Assembly (NCBI RefSeq): GCF_016522505.1
Contig: NZ_JAEHOH010000011.1
Location: 62,001 to 126,000 of the forward strand
DNA from: Leucobacter chromiisoli
GTDB lineage: Bacteria; Actinomycetota; Actinomycetes; Actinomycetales; Microbacteriaceae
DNA: 64,000 bases
Direction of reading: 5' to 3'
The translations under genes were made by a program, and so were the position numbers. The notes under the pieces are model-generated. The model worked only from the letters and a program-made list of their open reading frames with translations, made no database searches and was not told the origin of the DNA. Position 1 is the first letter of the stretch, and each line of letters begins with the position of its first letter. Of this stretch, positions 1 to 6,003 are shown piece by piece.

Positions 1-652
1 CCTGAGCGCCCGGTGGCAGAACGGCTTCCTGCATCGCTGAGAATGTGACGGTCTTCGGAAGCGGTAGTCGTGGGCTTCCCTGGTCGTCTTCCTCGACAAA
101 CACTGCCTCGCTCGGCAGCCTTACGCGCGCGCTCGTACGTCCTTCATTGGTCAGGACGGCAAACCCTCGATACCAAATGAAGGTATCTCTATTCCGAGGC
201 CATGCGAGCATGCGGTCCCCGAGCGGCTGGGAGCGCTCGATCGATTGCGGATCCAATAGGCGAAGCTGGCCCGCATTCGGCATTCCGTCCCTGTGTCCAT
301 CGACAAGCGGGCCTATCGCGGGTGAGAAGTCAACGGTGACTCTCGGGGCGTCTTGATCAGCTCGTGCGCGGATAGCTTCCTGCTGCACCTCGAGCGCTAC
401 CTTGACGGAATCAGCAGAGTTCTTAGCCTGCGCTTCTGCGGTAGCGGCTTGGCGTTCGCCCAACTTGATGAGTCGTCTGTTGTCTCGAGCCTGACGGAAT
501 GCGAAGAAGGCGAGCGCGAGCGTTCCCAGTCCTGTCAACAGATTTATCAAGTTTCCGATATCCGTAGCGGTCAGGCTGCGAAGCCAGTCGCCAAGGCCTA
601 GCAAGAGAGATGCATGCAGAGCGTCGAGTGCTAGGGCAAACTGATTTTGCAT
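1..652 (-). CDS. Partial membrane-anchored hypothetical protein (3' end outside the window)
   Basis: I do not recognise the family. The minus-strand frame stays open for 217 codons from an ATG at 652 (start MQNQFALALD) and runs off the left edge, so the C-terminus is missing. A hydrophobic stretch at about residues 32-52 reads as one membrane segment. It is followed by a charged alanine- and glutamine-rich stretch (residues 55-110) likely to be helical, and then a mixed soluble region. Codon use is less GC-biased than in the core genes, as in the other three genes left of tRNA-Ala. The next gene (727-1536) is on the same strand and 74 bp upstream, so the two may be co-transcribed. Two plus-strand frames over the same bases look like antisense shadows. 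Confidence 0.7.
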   Translation of the reverse strand, partial: MQNQFALALDALHASLLLGLGDWLRSLTATDIGNLINLLTGLGTLALAFFAFRQARDNRRLIKLGERQAATAEAQAKNSADSVKVALEVQQEAIRARADQDAPRVTVDFSPAIGPLVDGHRDGMPNAGQLRLLDPQSIERSQPLGDRMLAWPRNRDTFIWYRGFAVLTNEGRTSARVRLPSEAVFVEEDDQGSPRLPLPKTVTFSAMQEAVLPPGAQ

Positions 653-726
653 GACTCCATCATGCCCTCTCGATGGCTACCACTTCGGACTCCTGTGACA
701 CTTCGAGGCCTGCTGCTGCGGTGTAT

Positions 727-1536
727 CTAGTTCCTGTTCAGCCCGTGCCTGCGAGTATCGAGCGCGGTCTTGAAGTGGCTCTCGGCAGCATCAATAACCG
801 AAGCCGGTGTCGCCGGGTCAAACACTCGTAGCAGCGAGAAGCGGAAGCTTGCCGGGTTGAGGCTTCGTAGTTCCACGTTCCCGCCGTGCCCATTTGCGGC
901 GTAGACGTTCCATCGTTGCCGAATGCTCTCCGCCCCGTCGGCCTTACCGACGTATTGGCGGCCATCGCGCGTATCCGTGATGAGATATACGCCCATGACC
1001 GAAGACAATGCGGTGCGCCATGAGGCGTAGCGGTGTTCGCGCATCACCGCTTGGAGCAGCGCATAGTCAAGGATGAGGTGATCGAACCCCGGGAAGGGTA
1101 CTGGTTCCGCGTCGGCGATGCCCATGACGGCGTAACTCGCCGCTGTCGCGGCCCGCATCCACCAACTGCGCGGCGAGCGCCACTCGATCACCAAGCGATG
1201 CTGGAGATCCTCCATGTGCTCCGATGCAACAAGATCGAAGACTCGTCGCTCGCCATCGTTAGTGACCTCTCCTCGGTTCTCAAGCACCGACCAGAGCCGC
1301 GCCTGGTCACCGCCCTCCTTGACGAAGACGACCCAGAAGCGCGGTGGCACCGAAGGGAACCGTTGGGGGTCCGCTGCCTGATTCCAGGTGTACTCGAGGA
1401 TCTCCTGGTCGGTCGAGTCTGCGTGGATGCCGGAGAAGCCATTTTCGTGCTGTTTCACGTACGCATGCCGAATGACAAGCGCGTCGGCTAGGTCGATACC
1501 CGCGTCGCTCAGAATCGGGCCAAACGTCAATGCCAT
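727..1536 (-). CDS. GIY-YIG nuclease-like domain protein
   Basis: This 269-residue protein has a C-terminal GIY-YIG-type module, a small catalytic domain of homing endonucleases, UvrC and some restriction enzymes. The visible landmarks are GVYLI at 182-186 (GIY position), QYVGK at 194-198 (YIG position), an arginine-rich helix near 206-208 and a glutamate at 252, where the family usually places its metal-binding acid. The first 180 residues contain no domain I know; they may recognise DNA or a partner. It lies in the low-GC segment beside tRNA-Ala, divergent from the triple-HTH gene. Nuclease activity is inferred from the motif only. A role in a mobile element, restriction or repair is possible. 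Confidence 0.75.
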   Translation of the reverse strand: MALTFGPILSDAGIDLADALVIRHAYVKQHENGFSGIHADSTDQEILEYTWNQAADPQRFPSVPPRFWVVFVKEGGDQARLWSVLENRGEVTNDGERRVFDLVASEHMEDLQHRLVIEWRSPRSWWMRAATAASYAVMGIADAEPVPFPGFDHLILDYALLQAVMREHRYASWRTALSSVMGVYLITDTRDGRQYVGKADGAESIRQRWNVYAANGHGGNVELRSLNPASFRFSLLRVFDPATPASVIDAAESHFKTALDTRRHGLNRN

Positions 1537-1669
1537 AGATGAGAGTTTCTTCCTGTCCGAGGCGCACCAGAGGTGTCATGTACCAGCTTGCCACGAGACG
1601 CAGACAGGCTTGCCAAGGCGGTACGGGAATGGATCCACGTCGAGGAAAACGGAGTGATGACTGTCACCC

Positions 1670-1698
1670 TTGACTTCTTTTGCCTCTTGGCGCATAGT
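1670..1698 (+). promoter_or_regulatory. Sigma-70-type promoter for the triple-HTH gene
   Basis: A -35 box TTGACT (1670-1675) and a -10 box CATAGT (1693-1698) are separated by 17 bp. The expected transcript start is near 1705, only about 7 nt before the ATG at 1712, so the mRNA would be nearly leaderless. No Shine-Dalgarno sequence lies in front of that ATG, which fits. Confidence 0.55.
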
Positions 1699-1711
1699 CA
1701 GACGCTGAAGT

Positions 1712-2616
1712 ATGACGGAACGCAATTCTCACCCCTCTACAACACCTCTCGACCAGAACAGGTCGTTCCCTTCTGGCGTCACGGTCCTGCGATTAGAAAT
1801 GCTCAACGGCGCCGACGGCATGGCCGAGTTCTATTCGCCGGCCCCTCAGAAGATCAAAGCGGTTCTCCCGCGGGCAGCGTTTCAGCAAGTCATGGAGAAG
1901 CTGCCAGAGGTCTTCGATGATGCGGCGTGGTTGGAAGTCACGCTACTCAAGGACGTCGGCGGGATCCTGGAACTAGCCGTGGAGGATCAGCTGAAGCATC
2001 GAGTGTTTGTGGCGGAGGGACTCTTCGACGATATGTCGGCATTCGTCTGGGACAACGCCCCCAGTTCCTGTTCGCAGCGCGACCCGTTGGCCGCTACAAG
2101 AACCCGTTTCCGGTACTAGAACACGATATTCGCTCTCGCGTAGCCCTTGATCCCCTGCGCCGCAAGATACGACGCCTCTACGAAGATGAGAAGCTCACCA
2201 TTGCGGAAGTAGGGAAACGAGTCGATCTCTCACATGATACCACCGCGAAATACCTCGGAGAAGTAGGCGGCCAACTTCGAGAGCCAGGCATTCCACGCGT
2301 GAACCTGGATCTCGAGGTTGCTCGACGCATGTACCTACAAGACAAGCTCTCGCTTGAGGCGATCGGGGAACGCTTCGGCACGACAGGAAGCACGATTTAC
2401 TGGAAATTCAAGAAAGCAGGCATTCCGATCCGTTCGCGTGCTCCGAGCTACGACAAGAACATCGCGAAGATACGCCACCTCTACGAAGTGGAGAAACGGT
2501 CCATGAATGAAGTGGCAAAGATCATGGGTCAGAAACCGGAAACGATCGCGAAATATCTCCGTCGAGCAGGCGTCGAGATACGGTTAGACGCACGACAGTT
2601 AAATCGTCGCAAGTAG
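1712..2616 (+). pseudogene. Triple helix-turn-helix protein, apparently split by a -1 frameshift
   Basis: The upstream frame (ATG 1712) encodes 117 residues of an unrecognised domain and then, past a run of five C (2058-2062), reads into unrelated residues and stops at 2119. Re-reading C2062 as the first base of CAG opens a frame to 2616, giving a joined product of about 301 residues. The downstream part holds three similar 40-45 residue units (about 2155-2280, 2305-2430, 2455-2590). Each has a basic helix with RxLY or RxMY, then an HTH-like EVGKRV, AIGERF or EVAKIM, and a closing RxAG-type turn. The downstream frame has no plausible start codon of its own between 2062 and the first HTH. Loss of one C, programmed slippage or an assembly error would all explain this. 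A DNA-binding regulator is likely if the gene is intact. Confidence 0.6.
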
Positions 2617-2660
2617 AAGACGAGACCCTTCTTGTTCTGTTATCCGCAGAAGCCTCGCCC

Positions 2661-3644
2661 TCAGAAGTGTTGACGAGCGGCATGGAAGCGCCCAGCTGTA
2701 CTGCCTGGATTTGCACCCCGGACGGTGACACACATCTGCCCCGAACTAGCGCTGCAGGTCGAGCAGGGTCTGCTGAGTGGGCCTTCACTCGGCTTGGCAC
2801 TCGAGGCAAGAAGCGCCTCCGGGCTCAAGCTCGAGGCGATCACAAGCAGAAATACGAAGACTCCGAAATCATCGGGGCGGTACTCTTCCACGTCTTCTGC
2901 GATGAGCCCAGCCCACACGAGCAAGGCGCTATATGCAACGACCACCAGGCGGCGAGCTACTCGATCTGACCACTCAGGAAACTTCTCTTGCACGCGGACA
3001 GCAACCTGAGCAGCGCGCACCCAAACCGACTCCAAGACAGGGTCAGCCCCTTCGAGCAGCTCACCTTCAATTGAGGCGATGTCCTCCTCTGCGAGGTTGT
3101 GGCCAAGGTGGTCCACAACCTCGAGGATGAGCTCATCCGAGACAGCAGCAGGTGATTCGACTGGAAGGGAAACCGACGCTACTTGCCTGATGAGCCTGTC
3201 TACGTTCAAAGCCTCTATTGAAGCAACTGCCTGCGCGAGTATGTTCTGCGTCACCGAGGTTGCATTCGCTGCCACCGCGAGCAGCCGCGCATCAGGAAGC
3301 ATCGCGTTAGTAGCGCGGGCAAGCTCCTGCCATCTGATGTTCTGGGCTGCTGACGCGTACGTCTTACTCATCTGCTCGGTCATGCGCGTCACCCGGACGG
3401 CGTCCGCAATGAGCTTGCTGCTGTCGAACGTCTGAAGGCGTGCTATCGCTTGTTGTGCGATCTCCCCGTAGGAGGAGCGCGCAAGGGCAGCCGCTGCCGA
3501 GGTAAGCGCATCATGATTGGTGACTTGCGCGGCCAACTTCGCCAGGTCGATCCCTGCAAATGCCGACAGTGTGGTGATCTCACGCGTGGCACCCATAGCG
3601 ATGGCGCTCTGCGCTAAGCTCCGGCGCGCCCGTGGTTCAGCCAT
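2661..3644 (-). CDS. Two-TM membrane protein with C-terminal CCCH zinc-finger-like motif
   Basis: The 327-residue product starts MAEPRARRSL. Residues 10-200 are alanine-rich and helical with no recognised domain. Two membrane segments follow at about 232-249 and 261-277. The tail carries C294, C297, C305, H321 and R324, spaced like the short zinc-binding motif (CxxC, GxxC, HxxR) seen in many actinobacterial phage and mobile-element proteins. That similarity is recalled from motif shape and was not searched. A helical cytoplasmic domain joined to a hairpin anchor and a possible nucleic-acid-binding tail is unusual. The gene converges on the HTH gene with 44 bp between them. Function unknown; sensing or immunity is a guess. 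Confidence 0.7.
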   Translation of the reverse strand: MAEPRARRSLAQSAIAMGATREITTLSAFAGIDLAKLAAQVTNHDALTSAAAALARSSYGEIAQQAIARLQTFDSSKLIADAVRVTRMTEQMSKTYASAAQNIRWQELARATNAMLPDARLLAVAANATSVTQNILAQAVASIEALNVDRLIRQVASVSLPVESPAAVSDELILEVVDHLGHNLAEEDIASIEGELLEGADPVLESVWVRAAQVAVRVQEKFPEWSDRVARRLVVVAYSALLVWAGLIAEDVEEYRPDDFGVFVFLLVIASSLSPEALLASSAKPSEGPLSRPCSTCSASSGQMCVTVRGANPGSTAGRFHAARQHF

Positions 3645-3793
3645 GCTTCCATCCTTTCAGGAGGCGCATTCATTTTCTAATGTGCCCCAGGGTGGTGAGG
3701 GAAGACGGACTGCAGTTCTCATGTAGCACCACTCCGAGAACGCTAAGAACGGGTGTACTGGCACTCTGTCGTAAACGTGTTGCGAAAGGAAAG

Positions 3794-3845
3794 CGGCGGT
3801 CGAGCCGGAGAGCACGAGATAGTGCTCATCCAGCCACGACCGCCG
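3794..3845. repeat. Nested hairpin between the accessory segment and tRNA-Ala
   Basis: Outer arms CGGCGGTCG (3794-3802) and CGACCGCCG (3837-3845) are perfectly complementary. Within them GAGCAC (3810-3815) and GTGCTC (3822-3827) form a second perfect stem with a 6-nt loop. There is no T-tract, so a simple intrinsic terminator is unlikely. It could be part of a small RNA or a recombination site. The rest of the 293-bp gap 3645-3937 shows nothing else I can name. Confidence 0.5.
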
Positions 3846-3937
3846 TGATAGAGAAGGACAGCGAAGCCCACTACAAAACCTATGGCTAGCCTTACCAAAC
3901 GGCGTTTACGAAGACACCGATTGCAGTAAGCCTCTTA

Positions 3938-4013
3938 TGGTGGATCTGAGGGGACTCGAACCCCTGACCCCCTGCATGCCATGCAGGTGCGCTACCAGCT
4001 GCGCCACAGACCC
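3938..4013 (-). tRNA. tRNA-Ala (anticodon GGC)
   Basis: The cloverleaf is complete on the minus strand. The acceptor GGGTCTG (5' end at 4013) pairs with CAGATCC (one G-T pair). The anticodon stem CCTGC/GCAGG holds the loop ATGGCAT with anticodon GGC, and the T-arm contains GGTTCGAGTCC. A 3' CCA is encoded at 3938-3940. The low-GC segment begins directly at its 3' end, the usual target of integrases. Confidence 0.95.
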
Positions 4014-4072
4014 GTGGAAGTCGGACGAATTCTCCCCCGACAACTCTTCTATTCTAAACCACCCGAGGGAGG

Positions 4073-4465
4073 CTATTGCAAATCGGCCGCACCCCCTGGC
4101 GTGTCAAGCACCGATGCGAGATTGATCGCCGGGCAGTCCTTCCACAGCCGCTCGAGCTGATAGAAGTCGCGCTCCTCCTGATGGAAGACGTGGACGATGA
4201 GATCGCCGAAATCGAGCAGGATCCAGCGGCCGCTCTCACGACCCTCGCGGCGCACCGTGCGCACGCCTGCGTCGTTCAGCGCGTCCTCGATCGCGTCCGA
4301 GATCGACTGGACGTTGCGCTCGACGCTGCCGCTCACGATCAGGAAGGCGTCGGCGAGGCCGAACTGCTCGGCCACGTCGAGCGCGACCGGCGCCGTAGCC
4401 CCCTTGTCGTCGGCGGCGCGCACCGCGAGCCCCAGGTCTCTCAGCACGTCACGGGATTCAGTCAC
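4073..4465 (-). CDS. rsfS: Ribosomal silencing factor RsfS
   Basis: RsfS binds ribosomal protein uL14 and blocks subunit joining in starvation. The 130-residue product has the family core with RESGRWILLDFGDLIVHVF and the following ExRxFYxLERLW segment, and is of usual length. The start is GTG at 4465. It is the last gene of a leftward series nadD, a membrane protein and rsfS, an arrangement common in bacteria for nadD and rsfS. 37 bp separate it from the preceding gene. The C-terminal tail after LERLW is short and variable. Confidence 0.95.
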   Translation of the reverse strand: MTESRDVLRDLGLAVRAADDKGATAPVALDVAEQFGLADAFLIVSGSVERNVQSISDAIEDALNDAGVRTVRREGRESGRWILLDFGDLIVHVFHQEERDFYQLERLWKDCPAINLASVLDTPGGAADLQ

Positions 4466-4503
4466 GGTTACCTTTCACACGCATCATCGTTCTCGGAGTC
4501 GGC

Positions 4504-6003
4504 TCAGCCGAACATCCCGTTGCTGGCGCCCCAGACCACCAGGGCGCCCACGCCGAGCAGGAGAGCCCCGCCGGTCAGCGAGAGCACGAGCGGGAGCTTG
4601 CTGCGCTCCTTCTTGGTCTCGCTCACCACGGGAACGCTGGAGGGCACCATCGCGCTGACCGCGCGTCGAGCGGCCACGGGCCCGGATCCCTGCTCCCTCG
4701 CCGCCTGGTGGTCGAACGCCGTATCCTCCGAGTCGACCTCCACGGACTCGTGCAGAGCCGCATGGCCGCCCGTCTCCCCCAGCGACCTCGGCAGATCGAT
4801 CGAGCCGGTGACGAAGAGCTCGCCCGTCTCGCCGATCGGCCCGGAGAGACGCCCGTCGTTGGGCATCGAGGGAAGGATCAGCGCGGAGGTCGACGAGCCG
4901 GTGCCGCCCTCCTGCGCGACGGCGCGCGAGATCAGGTCGTCGAAGTCGCCGCCCTGGCCGTTCGCCTGCTGCTCGGGCATCGGCGACGGCGTGACCCGCG
5001 TCTCGGGATCGTCGAACACCGACCGCCACTCCTCGGGAGGGACGATGTCGGGGAAGGAGTACCCCTTCGACTGCGAGGAGGCGCTCTTCGCGCCGGGCAC
5101 GGCGTCCGCTCCAGGCTCCGCGGCCTCCTCCCGGTCCTCAGGGAGCACCTCGGCCTCGGTCGCCGCCTCGGCCTCGGTGCCCGGCGCATCCTGGGGCGCG
5201 GGGTCCGGCTGCTGCTCAACGGCGTCCTCGAGCGCGGCCTCCGCGGCGGGCTGCGGTTCGGAGTTCCGGCGCCAGGGCATCCGCCTCCGCGGCTTCTGCT
5301 CGCCCGCAGCCGGCACCGCCTCATCCGAGGCCGCGGCTTCGTCCGGCTCGTGCGCCTCTGCGACATCCTCCGCGTCCACCGCCTGCGCCGAGTCCGAGGG
5401 GCGCTCCGCCTCCTGCAGATCGGCCACGGTGAACGGCTGGGTCGGCGCGAGCACATCATCGAACGCCAGCCCCCCGGCATCCTCGCCCGCGGCTTCCGCC
5501 TGCCGGGCCGCCCGCTCGGCCTCGGCGCGCTCCGCCTCGGCGCGCTCCGCCTCAGCGCGCTCCGTCTCGGCGCGCTCCGCAGCGAGACACCGCTCCTCCG
5601 CCAGTCGGGCGGCCTCCTGCTCGCGCGCAGCCTCGGCCAGGCGAGCTGCCTCAGCATCGGCCTCCCGGGCAGCGGCTTCCTCGGCCTCCCGCACCGCTGC
5701 CTCTTCGGCCCGCTGGGCCTCGGCCTCCCGCTCGCGCGCAGCCTCGGCGCGGAGCGCCTCGATCGCCTGCGCACGCAGCTCGCGCATCTCACGACGGCTG
5801 CGCGGGTTGCCGTTCTCATCGACCGGCGAGATCTCGATCTCGTCGACACCCTCGAGATCGCTGAGATCTATCGCCCCGGTGTCGTCTGCAGCAGGCGACT
5901 GCGGCGCCGGCGCCTCGGATTCGGGCGAAGACGATGCCTCGGCCATCTCCCGCAAGCGTCGCTCACGCCTGCTCAGCGGGCGGGGCTCCTCATGCTCACT
6001 CAT
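4504..6003 (-). CDS. Alanine/glutamate-rich coiled-coil protein with C-terminal membrane anchor
   Basis: This 499-residue protein is not of known function. I chose ATG 6003 ([16 protein letters not shown]) because it overlaps the end of nadD and the basic [10 protein letters not shown] start resembles other actinobacterial proteins at this locus; an ATG at 6093 would bury 90 bp in nadD. Residues 60-160 are an E/A/R-rich probable coiled coil with near-tandem [14 protein letters not shown] runs. Next comes a long disordered acidic part, then a single hydrophobic segment close to the C-terminus ([20 protein letters not shown]). It is probably a tail-anchored protein with a cytoplasmic N-terminus. 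Its position between nadD and rsfS suggests simple co-transcription. Confidence 0.8.

What the first reader, a model, noticed from the sequence alone, without database searches (positions are those of the whole stretch)
1..3937. Low-GC accessory cluster at the 3' end of tRNA-Ala(GGC)
Four genes of unlike codon use (membrane protein, GIY-YIG nuclease, triple-HTH protein, zinc-tailed membrane protein) fill the segment exactly up to the encoded CCA of tRNA-Ala, a common integration site. A nuclease, a regulator and two membrane proteins together resemble defence or mobile-element cargo. No second tRNA-end copy or integrase is inside the window.
Basis: partly seen in the sequence, partly recalled or inferred. 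Interest (0 to 1): 0.6.

Follow-up and report, generated by a model that had tools for sequence, protein, structure and literature searches.

The report
Decayed tRNA island with defence nuclease
A short foreign stretch of DNA beside a tRNA gene, at a spot where relatives of this bacterium also carry differing DNA, holds an intact copy of a known phage-defence nuclease (Uzume) among orphan and broken genes; it is a real but mostly ordinary genomic island.

Summary
The low-GC cluster is real. It is about 5 kb long, begins about 1 kb left of the window and ends at the encoded CCA of tRNA-Ala(GGC). The GIY-YIG gene (727-1536, -) is a full-length UzuA, the nuclease of the Uzume defence system (PADLOC E = 3e-91), with its family's invariant active-site residues kept. 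The two putative membrane proteins and the N-terminal half of a frame-split HTH gene have only weak relatives, or none but themselves, in 398 family genomes. Just left of the window lies a broken N-terminal piece of a tyrosine integrase; its intact relative in genome G051 sits at this same tRNA end, with a second identical copy 49 kb away. The relic's attachment arm matches up to the G051 tRNA junction but lies 4.8 kb from the tRNA here, so DNA was probably added later between them. No second tRNA-end copy was found for this segment. Relatives hold other DNA here. UzuA rides tRNA-bounded islands elsewhere too (3 of 18 loci have tRNA-end copies). Best reading: a decayed, layered tRNA island with Uzume as cargo; a new member of a known kind.

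The parts
1..3937 (.). window part of the low-GC island; its left end lies outside, near -1000
1..652 (-). putative membrane protein, 337 aa; cut by the window edge, whole gene -361..652
   Evidence: weak family relatives and four Streptomyces plasmid relatives of residues 91-312, about 28-32% identity
727..1536 (-). uzuA, Uzume GIY-YIG nuclease, 269 aa, intact
   Evidence: PADLOC PDLC03973 3e-91 over the whole length; Pfam GIY-YIG 5.4e-6 at 181-260; invariant Y184, Y195-G197, R208, E252, N267
1712..2119 (+). N-terminal part of the HTH gene (first frame), orphan
1927..2616 (+). second frame of the HTH gene; HTH matches fall from about 2146 onward; probably the rest of the same gene, frame broken
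   Evidence: codon-position GC does not place the break
2661..3644 (-). orphan 327-aa putative membrane protein with C-terminal zinc-binding tail
   Evidence: PF24623 at residues 286-325; weak partial hits only, none
3794..3845 (.). very stable imperfect hairpin between the zinc-tailed gene and the tRNA
   Evidence: -47 kcal/mol, z -7.7, 0 of 200 shuffles as stable; found in this genome only, of 54
3938..4013 (-). tRNA-Ala(GGC), integration site

Best explanation
This is a layered, decayed genomic island at the 3' end of tRNA-Ala(GGC). An older element entered here by a tyrosine integrase of the kind still intact at the same tRNA in genome G051, and decayed to an integrase stub plus its attachment arm (about -1112 to -867). 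A later segment of about 4.8 kb lies between that arm and the tRNA, without an integrase or distal tRNA-end copy that I could find. Its one recognisable intact cargo gene is uzuA, the single-gene Uzume defence nuclease. UzuA most likely works as a stand-alone restriction nuclease: the N-terminal domain recognises some feature of incoming phage DNA and the C-terminal GIY-YIG domain cuts it. No methyltransferase was matched among the island's proteins, so a modification-dependent (type IV-like) mode is my favoured guess. Shown: the island, the tRNA site, the integrase relic, the variable site, UzuA membership and the conserved active-site residues. Inferred: the order of events and that this copy defends. 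Guess: what the N-terminal domain senses (about 0.4 that it is a base modification).
For: GC block ends at the tRNA. Integrase relic: DNA alignment with the tRNA-proximal end of the G051 element scores 112, best of 200 single-base shuffles 73, and ends at the TTTAAGAGTGG junction where the G051 tRNA begins; the relic frame finds itself, G051 twice (7e-5) and G022 once (8e-4) in 54 genomes. G051 has two copies identical over 1910 of 1910 aligned bases, each beginning in the tRNA 3' end, 49,065 bp apart. Site content differs: 12 of 39 scored loci, this one included, share less than 600 nt with any other locus. UzuA: full-length PADLOC match, invariant residues, I-TevI catalytic domain hit 5e-6. 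UzuA elsewhere: 6 of 18 loci within 2 kb of a tRNA gene, P = 2e-4, or 1e-3 with two orthologous loci counted once; tRNA 3'-end copies beyond UzuA in 3 of 18.
Against: No second copy of the tRNA-Ala 3' end was found for this segment, and the junction by the relic's arm is no more like the tRNA than shuffles (307 of 1000 reach its score). The relic is short and its protein match modest (45% over 40 residues); Pfam does not recognise it. 12 of 18 UzuA loci have no tRNA gene within 2 kb. Much of the named cargo at the site in relatives is metabolic rather than mobile or defence. Defence activity of this copy is untested.
Confidence: 0.75

Rival explanations
1. The whole 5 kb is one degraded element of the G051 kind, rearranged internally (inversion or deletion moved the integrase end away from the tRNA), rather than two layers.
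For: Only one integrase relic and one attachment arm are seen; no separate end of a second element was found.
Against: The relic's arm keeps the orientation and the junction bases expected next to the tRNA, and one relative carries two copies of such an element end at this tRNA, so addition at the tRNA end is the simpler path. Apart from the relic the 3 kb beside the tRNA in G051 shares nothing with this genome (162 nt).
Confidence: 0.15
2. UzuA here is a homing-type or otherwise selfish GIY-YIG nuclease and not a defence protein.
For: Its catalytic domain matches the homing endonuclease I-TevI (5e-6); one of 14 family members also matches a PADLOC homing endonuclease model weakly (5e-4).
Against: It matches UzuA models over its whole length, and the family is counted among defence systems in papers of which I saw passages (PMC10482375, PMC10023795); no intron or homing target was noticed beside it, though none was searched for.
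Confidence: 0.08
3. The block is a native, fast-drifting low-GC stretch and not acquired DNA.
For: No att repeat of its own.
Against: GC step at both ends, integrase relic with attachment arm, no shared content with the 50 relatives' loci beyond the relic and one weak HTH relative, UzuA in only 29 of 398 family genomes.
Confidence: 0.02

Closest known systems
Uzume (UzuA) phage-defence system
   Same: Full-length match to both PADLOC UzuA models, C-terminal GIY-YIG domain, no constant partner gene.
   Different: Nothing in the protein; only its setting in a decayed tRNA-Ala island and its orphan neighbours are particular.
CMoRE / PD-T4-3 (abstract and passages of PMC12923530)
   Same: Single protein joining a GIY-YIG nuclease domain to a second domain, defence role.
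   Different: CMoRE has the nuclease domain at the N terminus and a GIYxY-YIG motif; UzuA has it at the C terminus and reads GVYLI. What UzuA's other domain senses is unknown.
tRNA-anchored integrative elements / genomic islands
   Same: tRNA 3' end as site, integrase (here a stub) of a kind that lies beside the tRNA in G051, variable DNA between relatives, two copies of one element end in a relative.
   Different: No intact integrase and no distal repeat found here, so it is a remnant and probably immobile.

Membership tests
Uzume (UzuA) | full-length match to the UzuA profiles | tested here: met
   PDLC03973 3e-91 (1-269 of 269), PDLC03974 1.7e-86
Uzume (UzuA) | GIY-YIG domain with its conserved residues intact | tested here: met
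   Pfam 5.4e-6; Y184, Y195-G197, R208, E252, N267 invariant in 14 diverse members. That R208 is the catalytic arginine is inferred and recalled
Uzume (UzuA) | single-gene system without a constant partner | tested here: met
   3.5 kb either side compared at 21 loci: this locus shares only 291 nt, with L118. That Uzume is a one-gene system is recalled; the original paper is not held
Uzume (UzuA) | protects against phage | not testable with these tools
   needs plaque assays
tRNA-anchored integrative element | abuts a tRNA 3' end that is a proven integration site | tested here: met
   G051 integrase end at the same tRNA
tRNA-anchored integrative element | integrase of its own | tested here: not met
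   only a broken N-terminal relic at the left edge; no integrase among the island proteins
tRNA-anchored integrative element | copy of the tRNA 3' end at the far side | tested here: not met
   none beyond chance in this genome; met in L121, L131, L134 for other UzuA loci and in G051
CMoRE / PD-T4-3 | N-terminal GIY-YIG domain with GIYxY-YIG motif | tested here: not met
   GIY-YIG at 181-260 of 269, motif GVYLI; definition from PMC12923530 passages
prophage | phage structural genes | tested here: not met
   no structural-protein match among the six island reading frames in PHROGs; two weak lysis-type matches (0.035 and 0.17) for the first membrane protein only

The most novel reading that the evidence does not exclude
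The orphan zinc-tailed putative membrane protein and its neighbours are undescribed defence genes that travel with Uzume on this island, for example with the zinc tail sensing phage nucleic acid or protein and the membrane part disrupting the membrane of the infected cell.
Probability: 0.07. Interest if true: 0.5.

Novelty: new member of a known kind. Interest (0 to 1): 0.27.

Why it matters
It names the nuclease, shows that this tRNA-Ala end is a landing site for mobile DNA in the genus, with two copies of one element end in a relative, and shows that UzuA genes of this family lie near tRNA genes more often than expected. That gives a practical place to look for further defence genes in these bacteria. 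It opens no new mechanism by itself; Uzume's mechanism is listed as unknown in the papers I saw, and the conserved-residue map given here makes it easier to test.

Tried and rejected
Second tRNA-Ala 3' end: sought exactly and with up to 3 mismatches in the 20 kb to the left plus the window start, as exact matches of 13 or more and as best ungapped match against shuffles: none beyond chance. Is the junction by the relic's arm a worn tRNA end? No better than shuffles. Relatives of the zinc-tailed gene: 398 genomes, two weak partial hits; genome contigs, viral contigs, plasmids, phages: none. HTH N-terminal part: itself only of 398; viral and genome contigs, plasmids, phages: none. First membrane gene: two weak partial hits of 398, viral contigs none, four plasmids; it was not sought in phages or genome contigs. 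The small HTH gene and the HTH C-terminal part were not sought in those collections. These tools say they may leave out records of this genome or very near ones. UzuA in viral contigs: none, by single sequence or alignment. AlphaFold2 without an alignment gave unusable models of UzuA and the zinc-tailed protein (pLDDT 40 each), so no fold search was run. Codon-position GC did not place the frame change in the HTH gene. The ORF-length shuffle (2-mer shuffles) is rough: 22 of 200 shuffles reach 229 codons, so length alone does not prove the shorter frames. Promoter and terminator scans found no more than shuffles.

Rows dropped or not looked at: of 52 genus genomes with rsfS, G041 (match near a contig end) was not fetched, leaving this genome and 50 relatives. 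Of 32 UzuA places, 20 stretches were fetched; L135 and L136, more distant matches, were left out of the alignment and the neighbour and tRNA counts after one search failed on L135, leaving 18. L124 holds only 1.6 kb left of UzuA. The proA row is out of frame. The cargo scan used 76 of 98 chosen ORFs from 17 low-GC genomes, and only 25 of 39 Pfam families were listed. For one search I chose 14 members to span the diversity. The integrase listing was cut, so integrases near the tRNA were sought by a recalled motif, which surely misses some.
Full report
What is there. The window is contig C40:62001-126000 of a 42-contig, 3.35-Mb genome, so the DNA to its left could be read. The low-GC block begins about 1 kb left of the window: 200-bp GC falls from 0.68 (-1199..-1000) to 0.51 (-999..-800). 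It ends at the tRNA-Ala(GGC) 3' end: GC is 0.59 in 3001-4000 and 0.68 in 4001-5000. From left to right: an integrase relic (about -1112..-867, - strand); a 148-aa HTH gene whose open frame starts inside the relic's attachment arm (-870..-424, +); a 337-aa putative membrane protein (-361..652, -); uzuA (727-1536, -); an HTH gene split between two frames (1712-2119 and to 2616, +); a 327-aa orphan with a zinc tail (2661-3644, -); and 293 bp with a strong hairpin at 3794-3845.

The nuclease. The GIY-YIG protein matches the PADLOC UzuA model over its whole length at 3e-91 and Pfam GIY-YIG at residues 181-260. In 14 members chosen to span the family (26-75% identity to this one) Y184, Y195, V196, G197, R208, E252 and N267 never vary, and all 14 match both UzuA models. 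A profile of these finds the I-TevI catalytic domain (1ln0, 5e-6; 1mk0, 2e-4) and more weakly UvrC (0.014) among solved structures; the alignment pairs the GIY, YIG, Glu and Asn positions. That R208 is the catalytic arginine is inferred from invariance and recalled GIY-YIG biology. The N-terminal part has conserved positions (Q53 and F148-P149-G150 invariant; R23, H24 and W119 in at least 90%) but no solved relative was found by sequence.

Mechanism. Uzume's mechanism is given as unknown or poorly understood in the passages I saw (PMC10482375; PMC12926258; PMC10740426). The original report is not held, and my searches for more were. The nearest worked-out analogue that I found is CMoRE/PD-T4-3, a GIY-YIG protein with a second domain that senses modified cytosine and cuts phage DNA (abstract and passages of PMC12923530). 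UzuA has the reverse domain order and lacks the GIYxY motif, so it is not a CMoRE. By analogy, and because no methyltransferase was matched among the island proteins, I favour a stand-alone restriction nuclease whose N-terminal domain recognises incoming DNA. Against a uniform picture, one UzuA relative (L162) lies beside a DNA methyltransferase gene.

The site. Of 54 genus genomes 52 have rsfS; the loci of this genome and 50 relatives were compared (G041 was not fetched). In 43 of 51 the same tRNA-Ala(GGC) lies beside rsfS in the same order and strand; in seven of the other eight it lies further off on the other strand, and in G025 none was found in the 5.4 kb held. The 3 kb next to the tRNA could be scored in 39 loci: in 17 its GC is below 0.65, and 12 share less than 600 nt by tblastx with any other locus; this genome is in both groups. 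G044, G008, G037, G027 and G040 share related DNA there. Among 76 proteins from 17 low-GC sites are one each matching tyrosine integrase, serine recombinase, DDE transposase, replication-relaxation protein and phage capsid protein, but metabolic enzymes are as frequent (AMP-binding 3, FAD-binding 2); the only PADLOC match is one CRISPR-linked regulator, Csa3. G013 has one and G019 two copies of 16-19 nt of the tRNA end within 220 bp, which may be old attachment scars or simple duplications. The stretch from tRNA-Leu(GAG) to this tRNA is 18.6 kb here and 9.8-13.4 kb in the ten relatives where both fell on the fetched DNA; longer ones could not show up in 15-kb stretches.

The integrase relic. 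In G051 an intact tyrosine integrase (PF00589 7e-22) starts beside the tRNA-Ala end. Here the matching start of such a gene, in the same orientation, lies 4.8 kb from the tRNA. It is broken by a frame change, an internal loss and truncation. The DNA alignment scores 112 against at most 73 in 200 single-base shuffles, and ends at the TTTAAGAGTGG junction at which the tRNA begins in G051; the protein match is 45% over 40 residues (E = 2e-4 with relaxed settings), and Pfam does not recognise the relic. Searching 54 genomes with the relic frame finds itself, G051 twice (7e-5) and G022 once (8e-4). The two G051 places are 49,065 bp apart and identical over 1910 of 1910 aligned bases, from within the tRNA end to the end of the held stretch. 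That is what a tandem pair of one element would look like; I did not read the DNA between. The simplest reading of the present locus is that an older element of this kind sat at the tRNA and the 4.8 kb came in later between its arm and the tRNA.

UzuA elsewhere. UzuA models match in 29 of 398 family genomes (this one included; 20 of 85 genera), four of them only weakly (1e-11 to 5e-5). G002, of the same genus, has it on another contig than its tRNA-Ala site. Of 18 loci read with flanks (not counting this one), six lie within 2 kb of a tRNA gene. With the tRNA spacing of this genome (48 tRNA hits) about 5% would be expected; P = 2e-4, or 1e-3 if the orthologous L131 and L134 count once. The other 12 have no tRNA gene within 2 kb. 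In L121 (45 bp; with an integrase-like frame by the tRNA, PF00589 2e-10), L131 (27 bp) and L134 (36 bp) a copy of the tRNA 3' end lies on the far side of UzuA. UzuA-like proteins also occur in 394 plasmid records, 391 of them under 60% identity, and in three phage records by the C-terminal part. PMC10023795 lists Uzume among defence systems of actinobacterial prophages (passage).

The other genes. The zinc-tailed protein has two weak partial hits besides itself in 398 genomes and none in genome contigs, viral contigs, plasmids or phages. The HTH N-terminal part matches only itself of 398. The first membrane protein has two weak partial hits and relatives on four Streptomyces plasmids. None of these has a PADLOC match; the HTH repeats have one weak one (mad1, 4e-4). 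Around UzuA this locus shares only 291 nt (an HTH stretch) with one of 20 other loci, L118. They are best treated as orphan cargo. The frame relation of the two HTH parts suggests a broken gene, but codon-position GC does not place the break.

Verdict. The locus is a remnant island with an Uzume nuclease: useful for mapping defence genes, not new in kind. No call names the organism; high GC and the gene order around rsfS suggest an actinobacterium (recalled).

Noticed in passing
window 3794-3845: Very stable imperfect hairpin (-47 kcal/mol, z -7.7) downstream of tRNA-Ala and upstream of the zinc-tailed gene; found in this genome only, of 54. Terminator, regulator or an element end.
   Followed up: partly
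L156 and L158 (genome G051, C1:3630726 and C1:3679791): Two identical integrase ends, each beginning in the tRNA-Ala 3' end, 49 kb apart: looks like a tandem pair of one integrative element. The DNA between was not read.
   Followed up: partly
loci of G005, G021, G033, G001, G050, G014, G026: tRNA-Ala(GGC) lies on the other strand, about 1.3-7 kb from rsfS, instead of beside it: a rearrangement at this site in part of the genus.
   Followed up: no
L131 and L134, between tRNA-Val(TAC) and its 3'-end copy: A UzuA island of about 3.6 kb with a tRNA-end repeat and, in L131, a frame that looks like the C-terminal end of an integrase (PF00589 only 0.05): a small, decayed counterpart at another tRNA.
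   Followed up: partly
L163:1357-3662 and L161:1498-2748: On an Ensifer plasmid an UzuA relative is followed by a hypothetical gene and a second GIY-YIG gene; on a Mesorhizobium plasmid an UzuA relative is fused to DUF6508. Possible Uzume variants.
   Followed up: no
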